The notes beneath the pieces are model-generated. The model did no database searches and was not told the origin of the DNA. It saw only the letters and a program-made list of their open reading frames with translations. Shown here one piece after another: positions 2,949 to 31,000 of a stretch of DNA of 33,476 nt. This DNA comes from Planctomycetia bacterium (GTDB lineage Bacteria; Planctomycetota; Planctomycetia; Pirellulales; JALHLM01). The first letter of the stretch is position 1. Each line of letters opens with the position of its first letter. A program made the position numbers and the translations under genes. The stretch spans positions 1 through 33,476 of the forward strand of contig JAWXBP010000201.1 of the NCBI GenBank assembly GCA_034440135.1, in the 5' to 3' direction.

Positions 2949-3278
2949 TCACTTCCGGGTTCTTGATCCCTGTGGCGGCCGTCGCGTGGGGACAACACGG
3001 GTCCGTACGTCGTGCTCCGTCGGGTTTTGCACGCCCGCCCGTTCGAGCCTGTCGGCGTCGCCACTCACAGTAGCCGCCCGTTGCTGTACCCGTTCTTTTG
3101 CTTGATTCAGTTTTTCAGCGGGATCGGGTTTGCGGCCCATCGCCCAGCCCGCCAGAACATTCCGGAGAAAGCCCTTGAACGAACGGAGAATTCTCGCCTG
3201 GCCCCGATAATCGTTCGTTTTGACTGCCAACACGTACTGCTCTTCGAAGATCGCGGCAACTCGAATGGCCTCGGTCAT
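2949..3278 (-). CDS. Doubtful small ORF, 109 residues
   Basis: From the ATG at 3278 the frame encodes a protein beginning MTEAIRVAAIFEEQYVLAVK, with plausible amino-acid composition over the first 75 residues. The C-terminal 30 residues are rich in R, P and T and look like read-through into non-coding DNA. No good ribosome-binding site precedes the ATG. It abuts the transposase scrap at 3287-3415 on the other strand, so it may be a broken gene or a chance ORF. I recognise no family. This is the only candidate gene in the stretch 2813-3677 apart from the transposase remnant. Confidence 0.3.
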   Translation of the reverse strand: MTEAIRVAAIFEEQYVLAVKTNDYRGQARILRSFKGFLRNVLAGWAMGRKPDPAEKLNQAKERVQQRAATVSGDADRLERAGVQNPTEHDVRTRVVPTRRPPQGSRTRK

Positions 3279-3286
3279 CGGCTCGG

Positions 3287-3415
3287 CCTGGCCTAACGAA
3301 TCTGGCTGACGTGCTTCGGCGGCTCCCCAACACTCCGACCGAGCGCCTGGCTGAAATGCTGCCCGACATCTGGTTCCAGACCCACCCGAATGCAGCCAGA
3401 AAACGGGCCGCGTAG
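3287..3415 (+). pseudogene. 3' remnant of an IS66-like transposase gene
   Basis: In this frame the last 40 or so codons before the TAG at 3413 read LADVLRRLPNTPTERLAEML followed by PDIWFQTHPNAARKRAA. This resembles the C-terminal tail of IS66-family TnpC transposases, where a DVL-R-L-P helix is followed by LLP-x-x-W and a short basic end. Nothing upstream in the frame continues the catalytic domain, so only the tail survives. The sequence GGACGGTTAC at 3461-3470, about 45 bases after the stop, resembles the terminal inverted repeat of that family, which usually ends in CGCTTAC; a matching left end was not found. The family call rests on pattern memory and a short match. Confidence 0.5.
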
Positions 3416-6540: not shown

Positions 6541-8496
6541 CTACTCCTCGTCCTTCTGCAGGCTGGCCAGCACGCTGAAATCCTCCAGCGTCGTGGTATC
6601 GCCGATCTGGTGCTTGCCGCTGGCGATGTCCCGCAGCAGGCGGCGCATAATCTTTCCGCTCCGGGTCTTCGGCAGGGCCTTCGTAAAGCGTACATCATCC
6701 GGGACCGCCAGTGCGCCGATTTCTTTGCGCACATGGGCCTTCAATTCCCGCTTCAACTCCTCATTCGGCACCCCGGATTTCAGCGTCACGAACACCGCCA
6801 CGGCCTGGCCTTTCAGATCGTCCGGACGGCCGATCGCTGCGGCCTCGGCGACGTCCGGGTGGCTCACCAGGGCGCTTTCCACTTCGATCGTGCTGAGCCG
6901 GTGCCCGGCGACGTTAATCACGTCGTCGATCCGCCCCATGATCCAATAATACCCATCCGCGTCGCGCCGGGCATTGTCTCCGGCCAGATAGTGATGGGGA
7001 ACCTTGCTCCAGTATTGCTGCCGGTAACGATCGTCGTCGCCCCAGATGCCTCGCAACATGCCGGGCCAGGGCTTGGTCATCACCAGCATCCCGCCCTGGC
7101 CGTCGGGGACCGGCTGGCCGCTGTCCGTGACGATCGCCGGCAGAATTCCCGGCAGCGGCCGCGTGCAGCTCCCAGGCTTCGTCGGAATCGCCCCCGGCAA
7201 CGGCGACATCATGATTCCGCCCGTTTCCGTCTGCCACCAGGTATCGACAATGGGACAGCGCTCCCGGCCGATCTTGCGGTGATACCACATCCACGCTTCG
7301 GGATTGATCCCTTCACCCACGGTGCCGAGCAGGCGCAGCGACGAGAGGTCATACTTGTCGACCCACTTGTCGCCCCATTTAATGAACGCCCGAATCGCCG
7401 TCGGCGCGGTGTAGAAGATGGTGGCGCGATACTTCTCGATGATCTCCCAGAAGCGGCCCTCGTCCGGCCAATTCGGGGCGCCTTCGTACATCAGCACCGT
7501 GGCGCCGCAACTGAGTGGGCCGTAGACGACGTAGCTGTGTCCGGTCACCCAGCCGCAGTCGGCCGTACACCAGTAGACGTCCTCGTCGCGCAGGTCGAAG
7601 ACCCATTCCATGGTCTTCTTGACGTAGAGGTTGTACCCGGCCGTGGTGTGTTTGATGCCCTTCGGCTTACCGGTCGATCCGCTGGTGTAGAGGATGTAGA
7701 GCGGATGCTCGCTATCGAGGGGCGTCGCCGGGCAATCGGCCGACGCGCCGTCCATCAACTCGTGCCACCAATGGTCGCGTCCTTCGTGCATGTGAACGGC
7801 GTTGTTCAAACGCCGCAGCACGATGCAATGCTTCACCGTCGGGGATTTTTCCAGCGCCTCGTCGACATTCGACTTGAGCGGCAACTGCGCGCCGCGGCGC
7901 CAGCCGCCGTCGGCGGTGATGACCACTTTCGCGCCGGCGTCGTTGTTCCGCTCGGCGATGGCGGTGCTGGAAAAACCGCCGAAGATCACCGAATGCACCG
8001 CGCCAATCCGCGCGCAGGCCAGCATCGCAATCGCCAATTCCGGCGTCATCGGCAGATAGATCGACACCACGTCGCCCGCCGCGACGCCTAAGTGCTTGAG
8101 CACGTTGGCGAATTTGCAGACTTCGCGATGGAGTTGCAAATAGGTCAGCGTCCGCGTGTCGCCCGGTTCGCCTTCCCAGAGGATGGCGGCCTTATTCTGC
8201 CGCGGCGTGCCGAGATGCACGTCGAGGCAGTTGTACGACACGTTCGTCTGGCCGCCGACGAACCAGCGGGCGAACGGCTCTTGCCAGTCGAGCACCTTGC
8301 TGAACGGCCGAAACCAATGCAGTTCCTGGGCAAGTCCGCCCCAAAACGCTTCGATGTCGGCGGCCGCTTCATTCCAGAGTTTTTCATAGTCCGCCAGCGA
8401 GCCAATCCGCGCCCGCGCCGCGAACTCCGCCGGCGGAGCGAACACGCGATCTTCGCGCATCACCGTATCGACCTGTCCAGACTGTGTCCCGCCCAT
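6541..8496 (-). CDS. acs: Acetyl-CoA synthetase (acetate--CoA ligase, AMP-forming)
   Basis: The 651-residue enzyme activates acetate with ATP to acetyl-AMP and then acetyl-CoA in the cytoplasm. It shows the adenylate-forming hallmarks in order: the phosphate-binding loop [14 protein letters not shown], the [10 protein letters not shown] motif, the hinge segment [20 protein letters not shown] and the C-terminal [17 protein letters not shown]. The lysine in that last motif (about residue 615) is catalytic and is the usual site of regulatory acetylation. Length matches typical Acs (about 650). I chose the ATG at 8496, preceded by GAGG; a GTG at 8535 would add 13 residues. A cyclase-fold gene follows after 33 bases. 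Upstream lies a large nested inverted repeat instead of an obvious promoter. Confidence 0.95.
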
Positions 8497-8609
8497 GCCG
8501 CCCTCGAACGATGCCAGAAGCAAGAGGTTGCGCACTCAACGAGTGCCAGGGCGATTTTAGCGCAAGACGCGCCCGAGCGGTAGTACGGGGGGGAGTTTGA
8601 AGTTTGAGG

Positions 8610-8782
8610 GAGTTTGAAGTTTTCAGTGTTCAGTGAGAGCGCGTTGTGGCACGGTCTCCCGACCGTGCCACTCGGCCGACCGAAGGTCTCCCATGCCGCA
8701 TCCGCGCAACGTGGCACGGTCGGGAGACCGTGCCACAACAAATCATTCGCGCCGAAAACTGAACACTGAAAACTTCAAACTC
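8610..8782. repeat. Nested double inverted repeat
   Basis: The outer arms 8610-8634 and 8758-8782 are exact 25-base reverse complements (containing TTTTCAGTGTTCAGT). Inside them the arms 8643-8671 and 8711-8739 are exact 29-base reverse complements (containing GGCACGGTCTCCCGACCGTG). The inner arm is itself partly palindromic. The element fills most of the 292-base gap between the start of acs and the 3' end of cheB. A simple AGTTTGA repeat precedes the left outer arm. It could terminate cheB transcription in from the right; no protein is encoded. Confidence 0.85.
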
Positions 8783-8788
8783 GAATCG

Positions 8789-9913
8789 TCAAACTGCCGC
8801 GGCTACACGGCCCCACAACTTCTGCACCTGCGTCATGATCGTCGTCGCGCCCTGGTCAAGATGAAACTGGCGATCGACGTGTCCTTCGAGTTGGGCGACT
8901 TTGTTCATGCCGTAGACGTCGCTGCTTTCGGCGTCTTGTCCGAGGACATAGCCGCCCGCGGCGCGGATCGCCCCGCAGCCGTCGGAACCGTCGCGGCCCA
9001 TGCCGGTCATGATCACGCCCAGGCAGCGGTCGCCGTAAATCGCCGAAGCGCATTTCATCATCACGTCCACGCTCGGCTTGTGCCCACTGACGGTGTCGCC
9101 ATCGGTGACGTGACAGCGGACTTCGCGACCGAGTTTCTTTAACTCCAGGTGCGAACCGCCCGGCGCCACGTAAGCGCAGTTCGGTTTCAATACGTCTCCC
9201 GTCGCGGCCTCTTTGATCGTGAGGGACGACATCGCGTTCAATCGCCATGCGAAGGCTTTGGTGAACTGCGCCGGCATATGTTGCACGATCACCAGCGGCG
9301 GCAATGGCCCCCGCAGCGTCTCGAACAATTGCGTCAGCGCCGGCGGTCCCCCGGTCGAGATACCGAGCGCGATGCACTTATCCGCCAACTCGACGTCCGC
9401 ATGCGGGACCGCCGCTGCCGCCAACGGCAATTTAGGCGGAGCAATGGCCGCAGCCACTTGACGCTTGGCGGCGCGTGCGCGGCGGATCTCGATGATCTTC
9501 TTCACATCTGTGCCAGCCACGGCGCGGATCTTGCGCAACAATTCCTCGCGCAAGTGCGCACTCGTCGTCGGCCCGACGCCGTCCGGCTTGGCAATGTAAT
9601 CCATTGCGCCGCGGTCGAGCGCATCCAGCGTCGTGTTCGCTCCCAATTGAGTGAGCGAACTGACCATCAACACCGGCAACGGATGTTTCTTGAGAATCTC
9701 TTCCAGCGTTTCCAAGCCGTTCTTACGCGGCATCTGGACGTCGAGCGTCACCACATCCGGGTGCAACTTATCGAGCAACCGGAGCGCCTCGTCGCCATCG
9801 CGCGCAGTGCCCGCCAGTTCCATTCCGGGCGTTTCGCGGATGAAGTCCGAAATCATCTCGCGCATCAGCGCGGAATCGTCCACCACTAGCACACGAATGA
9901 CGCGGCCGGACAT
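8789..9913 (-). CDS. cheB: Chemotaxis response regulator protein-glutamate methylesterase CheB
   Basis: The 374-residue protein has an N-terminal receiver domain (residues 5-125) with the acidic pair D12-D13, phospho-acceptor D58 in TLDVQMP and K109 in AKP. A linker of about 50 residues leads to the C-terminal methylesterase domain with the catalytic triad S186 (GISTGG), H212 (QHMP) and D308 (GMGRDGSDG). CheB removes methyl groups from, and deamidates, chemoreceptor glutamates and glutamines when phosphorylated by CheA. A GAGG six bases before the ATG supports the start. No cheA, cheR, cheW or receptor gene is in this window, so its partners must lie elsewhere. The divergent oxidoreductase gene is unrelated in function. 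Confidence 0.93.
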   Translation of the reverse strand: MSGRVIRVLVVDDSALMREMISDFIRETPGMELAGTARDGDEALRLLDKLHPDVVTLDVQMPRKNGLETLEEILKKHPLPVLMVSSLTQLGANTTLDALDRGAMDYIAKPDGVGPTTSAHLREELLRKIRAVAGTDVKKIIEIRRARAAKRQVAAAIAPPKLPLAAAAVPHADVELADKCIALGISTGGPPALTQLFETLRGPLPPLVIVQHMPAQFTKAFAWRLNAMSSLTIKEAATGDVLKPNCAYVAPGGSHLELKKLGREVRCHVTDGDTVSGHKPSVDVMMKCASAIYGDRCLGVIMTGMGRDGSDGCGAIRAAGGYVLGQDAESSDVYGMNKVAQLEGHVDRQFHLDQGATTIMTQVQKLWGRVAAAV

Positions 9914-12748: not shown

Positions 12749-12820
12749 GAGGTTGGTTGCCTGGACCTGGTTTCGAGGGAAAGCGGCGCCGAAGAGCTGA
12801 TCAAATGATGAATGCAGAAC

Positions 12821-12879
12821 GATGAATGATGAACAATCTCGCACGCATTCTGTTCATCATTCTGAATTCATCATTCATC
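12821..12879. repeat. Inverted repeat of TTCATCATTCATC type
   Basis: GATGAATGATGAA (12821-12833) is the exact reverse complement of TTCATCATTCATC (12867-12879). A second pairing, GAATGATGAAC (12824-12834) with GTTCATCATTC (12852-12862), is possible inside it, so alternative hairpins can form. The right arm covers the stop codon of the FabZ-like gene (12871-12873). Low-complexity text of this kind is the third arm class seen in the window. Confidence 0.75.
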
Positions 12880-13404
12880 TTTCGCCTTGCGTCTCAACGC
12901 CTCCAGCCCCGGGGGATACGGCAACAGGTTGCCGTCTGCGCCGCGGCCGACGTCGAAGACGCCGAGGAGTTTGAGCGTGAAGACGAAGTTCTTCGGCTCG
13001 AAGGAGCGGCGTTGACGGCCAGCGTCATTCAGATGGGCGAAGACGATTTCACCCTCCGCTTGCAGCCGATCGCCGACGTGACTAGTGACGTGTACCATCG
13101 CGCCGTCGTCTTGAATGTACTCGATCGTGGCCGTGTAGGTCAGCGTCTCGCCGGGGCGCGCCGGGCCGTGGAAAGTCAACTTGGGGATTTTGGCCAGGAT
13201 GACCTTTTCCTCAAACGCCCGGGCCTCGCCGACCAGCAGCCCGCCGGTCTGGGCCAGCCCCTCGATGATCAGCGACCCCGGCATCACGGGGTAGCCCGGG
13301 AAATGGTCGTGAAGGTGCTCTTCGGCGAGGGAAAGATTCTTGATCGCCACCGCGCGCCGCCCGCTCTCGAACTCGGTAAAGCGGTCGATCCAGATCCAAC
13401 GCAT
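12871..13404 (-). CDS. fabZ: FabZ-like 3-hydroxyacyl-ACP dehydratase
   Basis: The 177-residue hot-dog-fold protein carries the signature HDHFPGYPVMPGSLIIEGLA with the catalytic pair H34 and E48. This corresponds to the active-site His and Glu of FabZ, which dehydrates 3-hydroxyacyl-ACP to trans-2-enoyl-ACP. It is about 30 residues longer than usual FabZ (about 145); the C-terminal extension (KNFVFTLKLLGVFDVGRG and a basic tail) has no motif I know. fabF follows on the same strand, which supports a role in fatty-acid or related lipid synthesis. A FabA or specialised hydroxyacyl-ACP dehydratase role is an alternative. No clear ribosome-binding site is seen before the ATG. Confidence 0.8.
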   Translation of the reverse strand: MRWIWIDRFTEFESGRRAVAIKNLSLAEEHLHDHFPGYPVMPGSLIIEGLAQTGGLLVGEARAFEEKVILAKIPKLTFHGPARPGETLTYTATIEYIQDDGAMVHVTSHVGDRLQAEGEIVFAHLNDAGRQRRSFEPKNFVFTLKLLGVFDVGRGADGNLLPYPPGLEALRRKAKDE

Positions 13405-13474
13405 AGGGGGCGAATCGAGTAACGGAGAGGAATACCGGGCCGGCGGCCCGAGCTAGACGTCGTCGTCGAAGTTC

Positions 13475-13540
13475 AAGCCCAGGGAAGGCCACCGATGACT
13501 TTCGCCGATAGGACCGACTTCGAGGGCCTTCCCTGGGCTT
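13475..13540. repeat. Inverted repeat with AAGCCCAGGGAAGGC arms, copy 1
   Basis: The arms 13475-13490 and 13525-13540 are perfect 16-base reverse complements with a 34-base loop. The same arm sequence forms the hairpin at 30931-30995. Here it sits between tRNA-His and the FabZ-like gene on the minus strand, with no T-run on either side. Confidence 0.8.
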
Positions 13541-13569
13541 AAAGCGCGGTTCTCGTCCAAATCTGCGTC

Positions 13570-15709: not shown

Positions 15710-17959
15710 ATGTTTGCTCCGCGTGTTGTATGGATTGCGCTATTGCTTCACTGCATGGCCGGGAATACTGCGCCGGCGGTGGAACCGTTGCCGGGAACGG
15801 CGCCGTTGGAACTGGAAGGAGACATCGCCTCGCAGTTGGTGGACGGCGTGGATCGGTTTCTGTTGCGGAAGATTGAGGAAGCAACTCCGCCCGGCTTGCA
15901 ACCTCGTCGCGCAGGGCCACCGCGACTTCGGATGCGCGGCCCTGCTCCGCAACCGGGCAACGTCATGGAGGCGAAGCGCGCGCGACTTGAGCACATTCTG
16001 GGCATTCGTGATGACCGGCTGCCGTTTGACGCCTTTGAACTTCGCGTTACGACGCGCGACGGTTCGCTAATTGGTAAGGGGACCAATTATGAAATCCATG
16101 CGATCCGCTGGCCGGTACTGGGAGTGCCCGGCCCGGATTGGTTTGACGAGCCCCTCGTGTATGGCGAGGGCTTGCTGCTAATTCCCGATCAAGGCCGCAA
16201 GCCGATCGCGGACGCGGTCGTAATTCCTGACGCGGACGAAACGCCAGAGCAGGTTGTAGGCCTCGTCGAAGGTTCACCGCGCGAACAGCAGATTGCGCGC
16301 GGCTTGGCGCAGTTGGGGATGCGCGTCATCGTACCGACATTGATCAGTCGTCACGAACGCCAGCGCCGGAACCGCGCCAAGCTCAGCGATCGCGAATACC
16401 TGCACCGCGCGGCCTTTGAGCTGGGTCGCACACTGCCAGGATACGAAGTTCAAAAAGTGCTCGCGTGCGTCGATTGTTTCGATCACGAAGCAAGCGGCAA
16501 GGAGAAAATCGCTGTGATTGGTTACGGCGAGGGCGGGATGATCGCCTTGTACGCCGCGGCACTCGATTCGCGAATTGAACTTACTGTAAGTGGTTACATC
16601 GACGATCGCCGCAATATTTGGAAGCAACCAGTCGATCGCAATATTTTCGGTCTACTGCCGGAGTTTAGCGATGCCGGGCTGCTTGGTATGGTTGCGCAAG
16701 GCCAGAGATTCGTCGAAGTCGGCGGCGGCCCTATTGTCACGCTTGCCGGTTCGGGCGGAGCGGCGGCGGAATTGCGGGGAACGGACAGAGAATCTGCGCT
16801 AAAGGTTCTCGACGCCGCCGGAATTGGACGCGCTCCATTGGTAAGTCTTGATGCAATGCGGCCGAAGCAAGACGATCCACTTCCAGCGATTGCCGGCCCG
16901 TTGCCGGACAACGATGCGAGGCAAGAGCGCCAAATCGCCGAAATCGATCGGCACAACCAATGGCTCCTCCGCGAAAGCGAGCATGTGCGCAAGGAGTTTA
17001 TGAACCAGCTCGACACTTCGTCGCTGGAAAAATACGAGGCGTCCGTCGAGCCGTATCGGGCGATCTTCGCGAACGAGGTGATTGGGCGATTCGATGACCC
17101 GTTGTTGCCGGCGAATCCGCGCTCCAGGAAAACTTACGACAAGGAGAAGTGGACGGGCTACGAAGTGGTGCTGGACGTGTTTCCGGATGTGATCGCGTAT
17201 GGCGTGTTGCTGGTGCCAAAGGATTTGAAGGAAGGCGAACGGCGGCCCGTCGTGGTTTGTCAGCACGGATTGGAAGGCCGGCCGAAGCACGTCATCGAAG
17301 GGGACGAAGGGGCGTATCATGATTTCGCCGCCAAGCTCTGCGAGCGCGGGTTTGTCGTGTTCGCGCCGCAGAACTTATACATCTTTGAGGATCGTTTTCG
17401 CACCTTACAGCGGAAGGCGAATCCGCTCGGCAAGACGCTGTTCTCAATCATGGTTCCGCAGCATCAGCAGATCACCGATTGGCTCAAGACGCTGCCGTTC
17501 GTGGACGGCGAGCGGATCGGCTTCTACGGGCTCAGCTACGGCGGCAAGAGCGCGATGCGCATCCCCGCGCTCGTAAAGAATTACTGCCTGTCGATCTGCT
17601 CCGCCGACTTCAACGAATGGGTTTGGAAGAACGCCTCGACGCGCAGCGAATATAGCTACGTCTGGAGTGGCGAGTACGAGATCTTCGAATGGGACCTGGG
17701 CAGCACGTTCAACTATGCTGAGATGGCGGCACTGATCGCCCCGCGGCCGTTCATGGTGGAACGCGGTCACTTCGACGGCGTCGCGCCGGACGAAGCCGTG
17801 GCCTACGAGTACGCCAAGGTGCGGCATCTTTACGCTGCGAAACTCGGCATCGGCGACCGCACCGAAATCGAATTCTTCGTCGGCCCGCACACGATCAACG
17901 GCCAAGGCACGTTCGACTTCCTACACCGGCACCTGAACTGGCCGAAGCCGGGGGAGTAG
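15710..17959 (+). CDS. Secreted two-domain alpha/beta hydrolase, acetyl-xylan-esterase-like
   Basis: The 749-residue protein starts with a signal peptide (VVWIALLLHCMAGNTAPA, about residues 6-23). Two alpha/beta-hydrolase modules follow. In the first, the nucleophile elbow reads GYGEGG at 271-276, with Glu274 where Ser is expected, so that module is probably inactive. The second (about residues 440-745) has a normal elbow GLSYGG with S609, a GHFDG acid region (about 686-690) and a late histidine in VGPHTINGQGT (H727), an intact triad. Similar planctomycete proteins are annotated as acetyl xylan esterases or dienelactone-hydrolase-like; polysaccharide deacetylation is a reasonable guess, not shown. 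A GAGG lies eight bases before the ATG. An inverted-repeat block begins at its stop codon. Confidence 0.8.
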   Translation: MFAPRVVWIALLLHCMAGNTAPAVEPLPGTAPLELEGDIASQLVDGVDRFLLRKIEEATPPGLQPRRAGPPRLRMRGPAPQPGNVMEAKRARLEHILGIRDDRLPFDAFELRVTTRDGSLIGKGTNYEIHAIRWPVLGVPGPDWFDEPLVYGEGLLLIPDQGRKPIADAVVIPDADETPEQVVGLVEGSPREQQIARGLAQLGMRVIVPTLISRHERQRRNRAKLSDREYLHRAAFELGRTLPGYEVQKVLACVDCFDHEASGKEKIAVIGYGEGGMIALYAAALDSRIELTVSGYIDDRRNIWKQPVDRNIFGLLPEFSDAGLLGMVAQGQRFVEVGGGPIVTLAGSGGAAAELRGTDRESALKVLDAAGIGRAPLVSLDAMRPKQDDPLPAIAGPLPDNDARQERQIAEIDRHNQWLLRESEHVRKEFMNQLDTSSLEKYEASVEPYRAIFANEVIGRFDDPLLPANPRSRKTYDKEKWTGYEVVLDVFPDVIAYGVLLVPKDLKEGERRPVVVCQHGLEGRPKHVIEGDEGAYHDFAAKLCERGFVVFAPQNLYIFEDRFRTLQRKANPLGKTLFSIMVPQHQQITDWLKTLPFVDGERIGFYGLSYGGKSAMRIPALVKNYCLSICSADFNEWVWKNASTRSEYSYVWSGEYEIFEWDLGSTFNYAEMAALIAPRPFMVERGHFDGVAPDEAVAYEYAKVRHLYAAKLGIGDRTEIEFFVGPHTINGQGTFDFLHRHLNWPKPGE

Positions 17960-18111
17960 CCCGCGAAACACGCTGAACACGCGGGAAAAATTTCTTGGAA
18001 GCGCGTACGCGACCGGTGCTCAACGAAAAATAATTGCGCCATCAGCGTGGATGACGCAGGACTTATTCGCCTTGCCCGGTACTTTCCGCGTGTTCGGCGT
18101 GTTTCGCGGGC
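17959..18111. repeat. Long-range inverted repeat, 26-base arms
   Basis: The arms 17959-17984 and 18086-18111 are reverse complements with one mismatch in 26 (GCCCGCGAAACACGC at the outer end), around a 101-base centre. The left arm begins in the stop codon of the hydrolase gene. The centre holds no gene. Confidence 0.75.
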
Positions 18112-18290: not shown

Positions 18291-18652
18291 GGGATTCACT
18301 ATGAAGGCAAGGAGGCACGGTGGGCGTCAGCCATTTGAAACGCGGAAACGCGGAGGCGCAGAGTCGCGGAGGGGGAGAGGCAGAGTGGGGAGGACTGGTG
18401 TAGGGCGGGCCGCGCGAGCGTTTCGTATCGTGTGCTCGAATGATTCTGGCGAAAGGCGAATGCCGGAATTGTTCGAAACGTAAGGCCCGCCGGGTCGCTC
18501 AATGGCGGGCCTTACCTCTGCGGTCTACGCCACCGTTCTCCTTCATCGCTTCAATCGTTCGCCGCGGCGAAGCTCTCGCGCGGCTCGCCCTACATCGCTC
18601 CTCGCACCCACTCCTTCTCTCTCCGTGTTCTCCGTGACTCTGTGGTGAATCC
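18171..18652. other. Intergenic repeat block between convergent genes
   Basis: Besides the candidate RNA, this stretch holds a perfect 12-base hairpin (18480-18491 with 18504-18515, GTAAGGCCCGCC) and a longer imperfect inverted repeat. In the latter, the text from about 18402 (GTAGGGCGGGCCGCGCGAGC) recurs in reverse complement near 18571-18592 with a few differences. Around 18612-18650 lies a unit reading, on the minus strand, TTCACCACAGAGTCACGGAG, resembling 23049-23080. No frame in it looks like a real protein. Confidence 0.6.
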
Positions 18653-19965: not shown

Positions 19966-20045
19966 AGGAGTAAAGGTGTAAAAGAGGGCGAGCGGAGAAC
20001 CCGAGTTTCTGGAGCTACTTTACTCCTTTACTCCTGTACTACTCC
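19966..20045. repeat. Imperfect inverted repeat of ACTCCTTTACTCC type
   Basis: GGAGTAAAGGTGTAAAAG (about 19967-19983) pairs imperfectly with CTTTACTCCTTTACTCC (about 20018-20034), followed by further TACTACTCC. It fills the gap between the DUF1549 stop and the DUF1501 start, so it would be transcribed inside the operon. Confidence 0.6.
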
Positions 20046-30930: not shown

Positions 30931-31000
30931 AAGCCCAGGGAAGGCGGTCCACAATCGTCGGCTTTGTCGACGGTTCTGGACAGCCTTCCCTGGGTTTTTC
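30931..31000 (+). terminator. Hairpin terminator, copy 2 of the AAGCCCAGGGAAGGC arms
   Basis: The arms 30931-30945 and 30983-30997 are reverse complements apart from one base, and a T-run (30995-30999) follows on the plus strand, 30 bases after the last stop of the ECF42 operon. The arms equal those at 13475-13540, while the loop sequence is different. The loop contains an additional imperfect pairing. Confidence 0.7.

What the first reader, a model, noticed from the sequence alone, without database searches (positions are those of the whole stretch)
8610..8782. Nested pair of perfect inverted repeats, 25 and 29 bases
Two independent exact inverted repeats are stacked inside one 173-base element between cheB and acs. 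The outer and inner arms have unrelated sequences, so one repeat seems to have been inserted into, or grown within, the other. The inner arm also contains a smaller palindrome. Such an element could extrude as a cruciform, act on transcription, or be a non-autonomous mobile unit.
Basis: seen in the sequence. Interest (0 to 1): 0.55.

Follow-up and report, generated by a model that had tools for sequence, protein, structure and literature searches.

The report
Nested dispersed palindromic repeats
The gap between two genes of an uncultured, probably planctomycete bacterium holds two unrelated high-copy hairpin repeats, one inside the other, and a close relative suggests that the inner one arrived later, like a tiny passive mobile element.

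Summary
In detail: exact inverted repeats of 25 bp (8610-8634/8758-8782) and 29 bp (8643-8671/8711-8739) are nested between cheB and acs. Neither is local. The inner hairpin has 160 genomic matches (3 mismatches or fewer), the outer arm 205 (2 or fewer); reversed-pattern controls gave 0.

The inner element is a pair of inverted 26-bp hairpins with GTT/AAC ends, laid out like a REPIN (head-to-head REP dimer). It lacks the GTAG tag, no Y1 transposase gene was found beside it, and it shows no target duplication. The outer element is a palindrome whose arms lie against gene ends.

In a congeneric genome the same gap keeps both outer arms identical but has no inner element. So the outer is older and the inner was probably gained; loss in the relative remains possible. 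The loop also changed, so it is not a clean insertion.

At 10 other doubly anchored inner sites, the relative has an inner hairpin in 2 and an outer arm in 5: the inner may prefer outer-bearing gaps.

Verdict: real, mobile-like, REPIN-like but untagged; moderately interesting. This window also holds a canonical GTAG REPIN.

The parts
8610..8634 (+). left arm of the outer palindrome (dispersed family, GAGTTTGAAGTTTTCAGTGTTCAGT)
   Evidence: 205 matches of its 19-nt core in the genome, control 0
8758..8782 (-). right arm of the outer palindrome; ends 6 nt from the cheB ORF end at 8789
   Evidence: 22 of 22 compared bases identical in the relative
8643..8645 (+). GTT end of the inner element
   Evidence: 87 of 95 fetched G000 hairpins carry GTT here
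8646..8671 (+). left hairpin of the inner element
   Evidence: compensatory stem changes in the family
8672..8710 (.). 39-nt spacer of the inner element, with a left sub-hairpin GACC-GAA-GGTC
   Evidence: 39 nt is the second commonest spacer length, 6 of 38
8711..8736 (-). right hairpin of the inner element
8737..8739 (+). AAC end of the inner element
8635..8642 (.). left remainder of the outer loop; no counterpart recognised in the relative
8740..8757 (.). right remainder of the outer loop; only its last bases (GAAA) match the relative
8591..8607 (+). 17-nt duplication of the outer end of the left outer arm (15-nt exact repeat, step 17)
8789..9913 (-). cheB (chemotaxis methylesterase), flank
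6541..8535 (-). acs (acetyl-CoA synthetase), flank

Best explanation
Two unrelated families of short non-coding palindromic elements, one inside the other. The outer (8610-8782) is an old copy of a family whose arms, built of 7-nt steps, tend to lie against gene ends. The inner (8643-8739) is a copy of a REPIN-like family: two inverted hairpins with GTT/AAC ends around a short spacer. SHOWN: both families are dispersed; in this genus the inner hairpins lie mostly in convergent pairs; the inner stem keeps pairing through two-sided changes; in a congener the same gap has the outer arms and no inner element. INFERRED: the inner is a non-autonomous unit copied in trans as single-stranded hairpin DNA by an enzyme not identified here (an HUH/IS200-like route is the best analogue), and it entered or replaced the loop of the older outer palindrome after the two species split. 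An effect on the cheB-acs transcript, if any, is probably a by-product.
For: Inner 82+78 matches in 7.29 Mb, control 0; outer 101+104, control 0. In fetched G000 sequence 38 of 39 neighbouring inner hairpin pairs are convergent (18 of 95 hairpins unpaired), spacers 45 nt in 13 and 39 nt in 6 of the 38; G001 16 of 17 (10 of 43 unpaired). 87 of 95 hairpins carry GTT at the foot; stem pairs changed on both sides still pair in 15 of 16 cases (G000) and 14 of 16 (G001). Congener gap: both outer arms 22/22 identical, no inner. Of 10 other doubly anchored inner sites the congener has an inner hairpin in 2 (L003; L013, a single hairpin) and an outer arm in 5; of 15 doubly anchored outer sites 11 are shared, so the inner turns over faster. 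No target duplication.
Against: No enzyme found: none of the 5 Y1_Tnp loci has an inner hairpin within its flanks, and G026 has 26 inner hairpins but no Y1_Tnp match (790 contigs, so one may be missed). One-sided stem changes are commoner than two-sided (83 and 41). In the loci fetched from outside the genus 14 of 18 hairpins were unpaired, so the pair is not the only form. The event here is not clean: the congener's 25-nt loop has no counterpart in the window, so replacement, or loss in the congener, is possible. At G000:C226 (L127) the inner element inside an outer arm is shared by both species, so nesting is not always recent. One congener cannot polarise the change firmly.
Confidence: 0.72

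Rival explanations
1. The inner element is a MITE of a DDE-type insertion sequence: its 29-bp inverted repeats are terminal repeats cut and moved in trans by that transposase.
For: Perfect 29-bp terminal inverted repeats, about 100 bp length, about 80 copies' worth of hairpins.
Against: No target duplication of 3-8 nt in 35 G000 and 13 G001 elements with intact ends. Each end is itself a hairpin that keeps pairing, as in REP-type ends. No autonomous copy was recognised in the fetched loci, but they were not searched for one systematically.
Confidence: 0.1
2. No transposase is involved: the gaps exchange and grow palindromes by template switching, slippage and recombination between similar arms.
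For: Outer arms 252 of 264 bases identical over 6 shared pairs while 5 of 6 loops are clearly less alike than the gene flanks. Tandem partial end copies follow some inner elements (L011, L019, L022). The left outer arm here is partly duplicated. The intergenic changes seen are not clean insertions.
Against: A convergent pair with constant GTT/AAC ends and preferred spacer lengths at many unrelated loci needs a defined unit to be copied.
Confidence: 0.1
3. It is a local regulatory structure (terminator, attenuator or mRNA stabiliser) kept by selection between cheB and acs.
For: Very stable predicted RNA (z -14.4); lies 6 nt beyond the cheB ORF end; outer arms conserved in the congener.
Against: Both arms are dispersed families; the inner half is absent in the congener; no T-tract terminator there; no Rfam family reaches its gathering score (best 33.9 of 90 bits).
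Confidence: 0.08

Closest known systems
REPIN (REP doublet forming hairpin; Bertels and Rainey, PMC3116915, passages seen)
   Same: Two inverted hairpin repeats around a short spacer, dispersed, together able to form one long hairpin; no recognisable target duplication.
   Different: No GTAG-type tag; no RAYT gene seen beside any copy; other sequence; sits inside a second repeat family.
GTAG-tagged REPs, head-to-head (HH) dimers (PMC3733652; sections 5 and 16 read, other passages seen)
   Same: Short-loop palindromes with 11-bp stems, HH dimers 20-100 bp apart, sub-types with complementary stem changes.
   Different: Foot is GTT, not GTAG or its listed variants. The same genome has a true GTAG family, also in this window.
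TIRs / TIRtrons of the same paper (TIR-associated tyrosine transposases)
   Same: Dispersed inverted repeats, partly self-complementary, arranged as dimers, unrelated to GTAG REPs.
   Different: There the repeats flank a tyrosine transposase gene; here none was found flanked by the inner or outer repeat.
MITEs (general knowledge)
   Same: Small, non-coding, terminal inverted repeats, many copies.
   Different: No target duplications.
Short tandemly repeated repeats of cyanobacteria (heptamers; recalled, from no call)
   Same: The outer arm reads as 7-nt steps ACTGAAA/ACTGAAC/ACTTCAA.
   Different: Here mirrored into a palindrome around a loop.

Membership tests
REPIN | REP-like hairpins in inverted pairs at preferred spacing | tested here: met
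   38 of 39 G000 and 16 of 17 G001 neighbouring pairs convergent; spacers 45 and 39 nt commonest. Outside the genus 14 of 18 fetched hairpins unpaired.
REPIN | high copy number, dispersed | tested here: met
   160 matches, control 0
REPIN | associated RAYT gene flanked by the same repeat | tested here: not met
   5 Y1_Tnp loci, no inner hairpin in the flanks; assembly of 534 contigs, about 96% complete, so one could be missed
REPIN | excision or movement seen in reads | not testable with these tools
   no reads held
GTAG-tagged REP | GTAG (or GYAG, GYRG, GTRG, GTMG, GTGG) unpaired tag at the foot | tested here: not met
   87 of 95 have GTT followed directly by the paired stem; variants listed in PMC3733652 section 5
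CGTC-tagged REP | CGTC unpaired tag at one end | tested here: not met
   foot is GTT in 87 of 95; CGT in 1
DDE-type MITE | target-site duplication | tested here: not met
   none of 3-8 nt in 35 + 13 elements; 2-nt matches 1 and 0, below the shuffle means
Intrinsic terminator | hairpin followed by a T tract | tested here: not met
   one site in 8400-9000, at 8880 inside cheB; 0.7 expected in shuffles
Rfam RNA family | score over the gathering threshold | tested here: not met
   six matches up to E 1, none over its gathering score

The most novel reading that the evidence does not exclude
Outer palindromes act as landing and exchange sites: their arms stay constant while the loop is repeatedly replaced, and the REPIN-like inner element lands preferentially in such gaps or loops, giving composite two-family elements that can themselves be inherited.
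Probability: 0.22. Interest if true: 0.6.

Novelty: new variant of a known kind. Interest (0 to 1): 0.36.

Why it matters
It adds two interspersed palindromic families, for which no named counterpart was found in the searches made here, in a little-studied lineage. One has REPIN layout without the GTAG tag or a neighbouring RAYT, which bears on how untagged palindromic repeats spread. The pair of congeneric genomes makes gain, loss and nesting of such elements countable.

Tried and rejected
Target duplications: tested, none. RAYT linkage: no inner or outer repeat directly flanking; one outer copy with a degenerate inner half lies about 1 kb from the Y1_Tnp of L061. Presence of Y1_Tnp across 57 genomes does not follow the inner family: 5 of the 6 inner-positive and 37 of the 51 inner-negative genomes have it. 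Rfam: nothing over threshold. Viral contigs: no exact inner match. Phylum-wide draw: 2 of 294 genomes, own included. Clean empty sites that would give exact ends: not found; in most compared gaps much of the non-coding sequence differs. Literature: no paper in the held library carries any of five repeat strings; REPIN + Planctomycet gave 7 papers, of which only PMC3733652 and PMC6006769 concern such repeats by their titles and abstracts; other searches (the last found 0). Of papers, PMC3733652 sections 5 and 16 were read and other passages seen; PMC3116915 and PMC6006769 passages only; the rest search listings. A k-mer survey of fetched loci was too biased towards the two families to count others.

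Full report
What is there. The window's 8610-8782 holds a perfect 25-bp inverted repeat around a perfect 29-bp one. The left and right inner arms are each hairpins, GTGGCACGGTC-TCCC-GACCGTGCCAC, so the element has three levels. It lies between cheB (8789-9913, minus) and acs (6541-8535, minus). It is far beyond chance and folds very stably as RNA and DNA. The lineage is probably planctomycete: the window codes for DUF1501 and PSCyt2/PSD1 proteins, which I recall as typical of that phylum, and the only outside genome with a full exact inner element in the one collection scan made is a Gemmataceae MAG from Lake Baikal (records very near the window's own genome may be left out there).

Two dispersed families. 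The inner hairpin matches 160 times in the 7.29-Mb, 534-contig genome at up to 3 mismatches, the outer core 205 times at up to 2; reversed controls gave 0. In 57 genomes (own included; one of the same genus, the rest of the same order) the inner occurs in 6: G000 160, G001 42, G026 26, G009 23, G032 9, G036 1. The outer, at 1 mismatch, occurs in 6: G000 159, G001 156, G031 10, G014 2, G021 2, G036 1. In an even draw of 294 genomes of the phylum the inner, at 2 mismatches, occurs in 2: G000 and G161 with 3. So both are patchy and abundant only in this genus.

Anatomy of the inner family. In fetched G000 sequence I found 95 distinct hairpins (7 mismatches or fewer; the sample leans to exact copies, since the first loci were chosen as such). 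87 of 95 have GTT at the foot. 38 of 39 neighbouring pairs are convergent; 18 hairpins were unpaired; spacers run 26-74 nt with 45 (13) and 39 (6) commonest. The Gemmataceae copies and some copies in both species of the genus have a second, inner pair of sub-arms (GACCGAAGGTC ... GACCTTCGGTC), making a longer palindrome; most copies in the genus, including the window's, keep only one sub-arm. Two-sided stem changes pair in 15 of 16 cases in G000, 14 of 16 in G001 and 3 of 3 elsewhere, although one-sided changes are commoner (83, 41 and 21). Outside the genus 14 of 18 fetched hairpins were unpaired. Elements with intact ends show no target duplication: 0 of 35 and 0 of 13 at 3-8 nt.

Anatomy of the outer family. 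Arms read GAGTTTGAAGTTTTCAGTGTTCAGT(TTTCAGT), in 7-nt steps, facing each other round a loop. By a crude ORF caller, 33 arms lie a median of 17 nt from a gene edge on the outer side and 89 nt on the loop side; 16 of 33 are within 20 nt outside, 5 on the loop side. Of 17 distinct outer pairs in fetched G000 sequence, 4 hold inner stems in the loop (window, L127, L051, L041); counting only the 12 found in loci chosen for the outer arm, 2 do. In G001 it is 1 of 4. Of 29 inner sites, not counting the window, 5 have an outer arm within 250 nt, each facing the inner element.

The relative. The same gap in G001 (cheB 95%, acs 98% protein identity) carries the outer palindrome with a 25-nt loop and no inner element. 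Both arms are identical over 22 nt each. The loop has been replaced, not simply split. From 28 inner-site flanks G001 gave 13 matches, 10 anchored on both sides. At these 10 it has an inner hairpin in 2 and an outer arm in 5 (L010, L020, L016, L021, L030); in 4 of those 5 G000 also has an outer arm. From the average outer density in G001 (156 in 5.8 Mb) about 0.13 arms would be expected in those 4.9 kb; this is my arithmetic and ignores that repeats keep to gaps, so it overstates the surprise. From 19 outer-site flanks (4 of them picked because they were nested) 18 matched, 15 anchored on both sides, and 11 of these are shared. The inner therefore turns over faster than the outer. At C226 (L127) the inner beside the outer arm is shared by both species, so some nesting is older. 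Over six shared outer pairs the arms agree at 252 of 264 bases, flanks at 81-97%, and loops at 23/123, 25/36, 15/32, 41/63, 91/104 and 74/126.

Mechanism. The evidence favours a small passive element copied as a defined GTT...AAC unit, by analogy with REPINs and their single-strand transposases. That step is inferred. The genome has 5 Y1_Tnp genes; no inner hairpin lies in the flanks of any, though one, at C285, is flanked by a different hairpin whose 16-mer recurs in the fetched sequence. G026 has inner hairpins and no Y1_Tnp match. A retired or missing enzyme, or another one, must be assumed. Recombination or template switching at palindromes could explain the loop changes.

Known or new. 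In layout the inner is a head-to-head REP dimer or REPIN (PMC3733652 sections 5 and 16; PMC3116915 passages). It fails the GTAG-tag and RAYT tests, so I do not file it as a member; it works like one. The window itself offers the comparison: 2835-2914 is a true GTAG REPIN-like pair with 51 matches in the genome. No paper in the held library carries the repeat strings.

Verdict. Correct observation, good first reading, a new variant of a known kind. The preference of the inner for outer palindromes is the part worth a whole-genome test.

Noticed in passing
2835-2858 / 2891-2914: Perfect 24-nt inverted repeat GTAGGTCAGGCTTTCCAGCCTGAC: GTAG tag plus hairpin, a canonical GTAG REPIN layout; 51 matches in the genome, control 0.
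   Followed up: partly
13472-13543 and 30931-30997: Two palindromes of one further family (AGCCCAGGGAAGGCC...); 15 distinct copies in fetched G000 sequence, window included.
   Followed up: partly
12804-12883, 17959-18111, 18390-18603, 19966-20035: Four more long inverted repeats in or near gaps, each with further copies in the fetched G000 sequence (6, 3, 8 and 7 distinct, window included): the genome's gaps seem full of such families.
   Followed up: partly
L011, L019, L022, L027 beside inner elements: Tandem partial copies of the inner element's end (about 16-20 nt steps ending in GTGCCACAAC) run outward from the element, as if ends were copied repeatedly.
   Followed up: no
L143/L172, L055/L168, L060/L171, L047/L176, L051/L180: The same gap holds an outer palindrome in one species and other repeat-like inverted sequence in the other, judged by eye from alignments.
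   Followed up: no
L141 (G000:C285) about 3198-3361: A Y1_Tnp gene has a pair of inverted hairpins (GCACTGGCGGACGAGCCGCCAGTGGCACCC) beside it whose 16-mer recurs at 5 places in fetched sequence: a likely RAYT with its own repeat.
   Followed up: no
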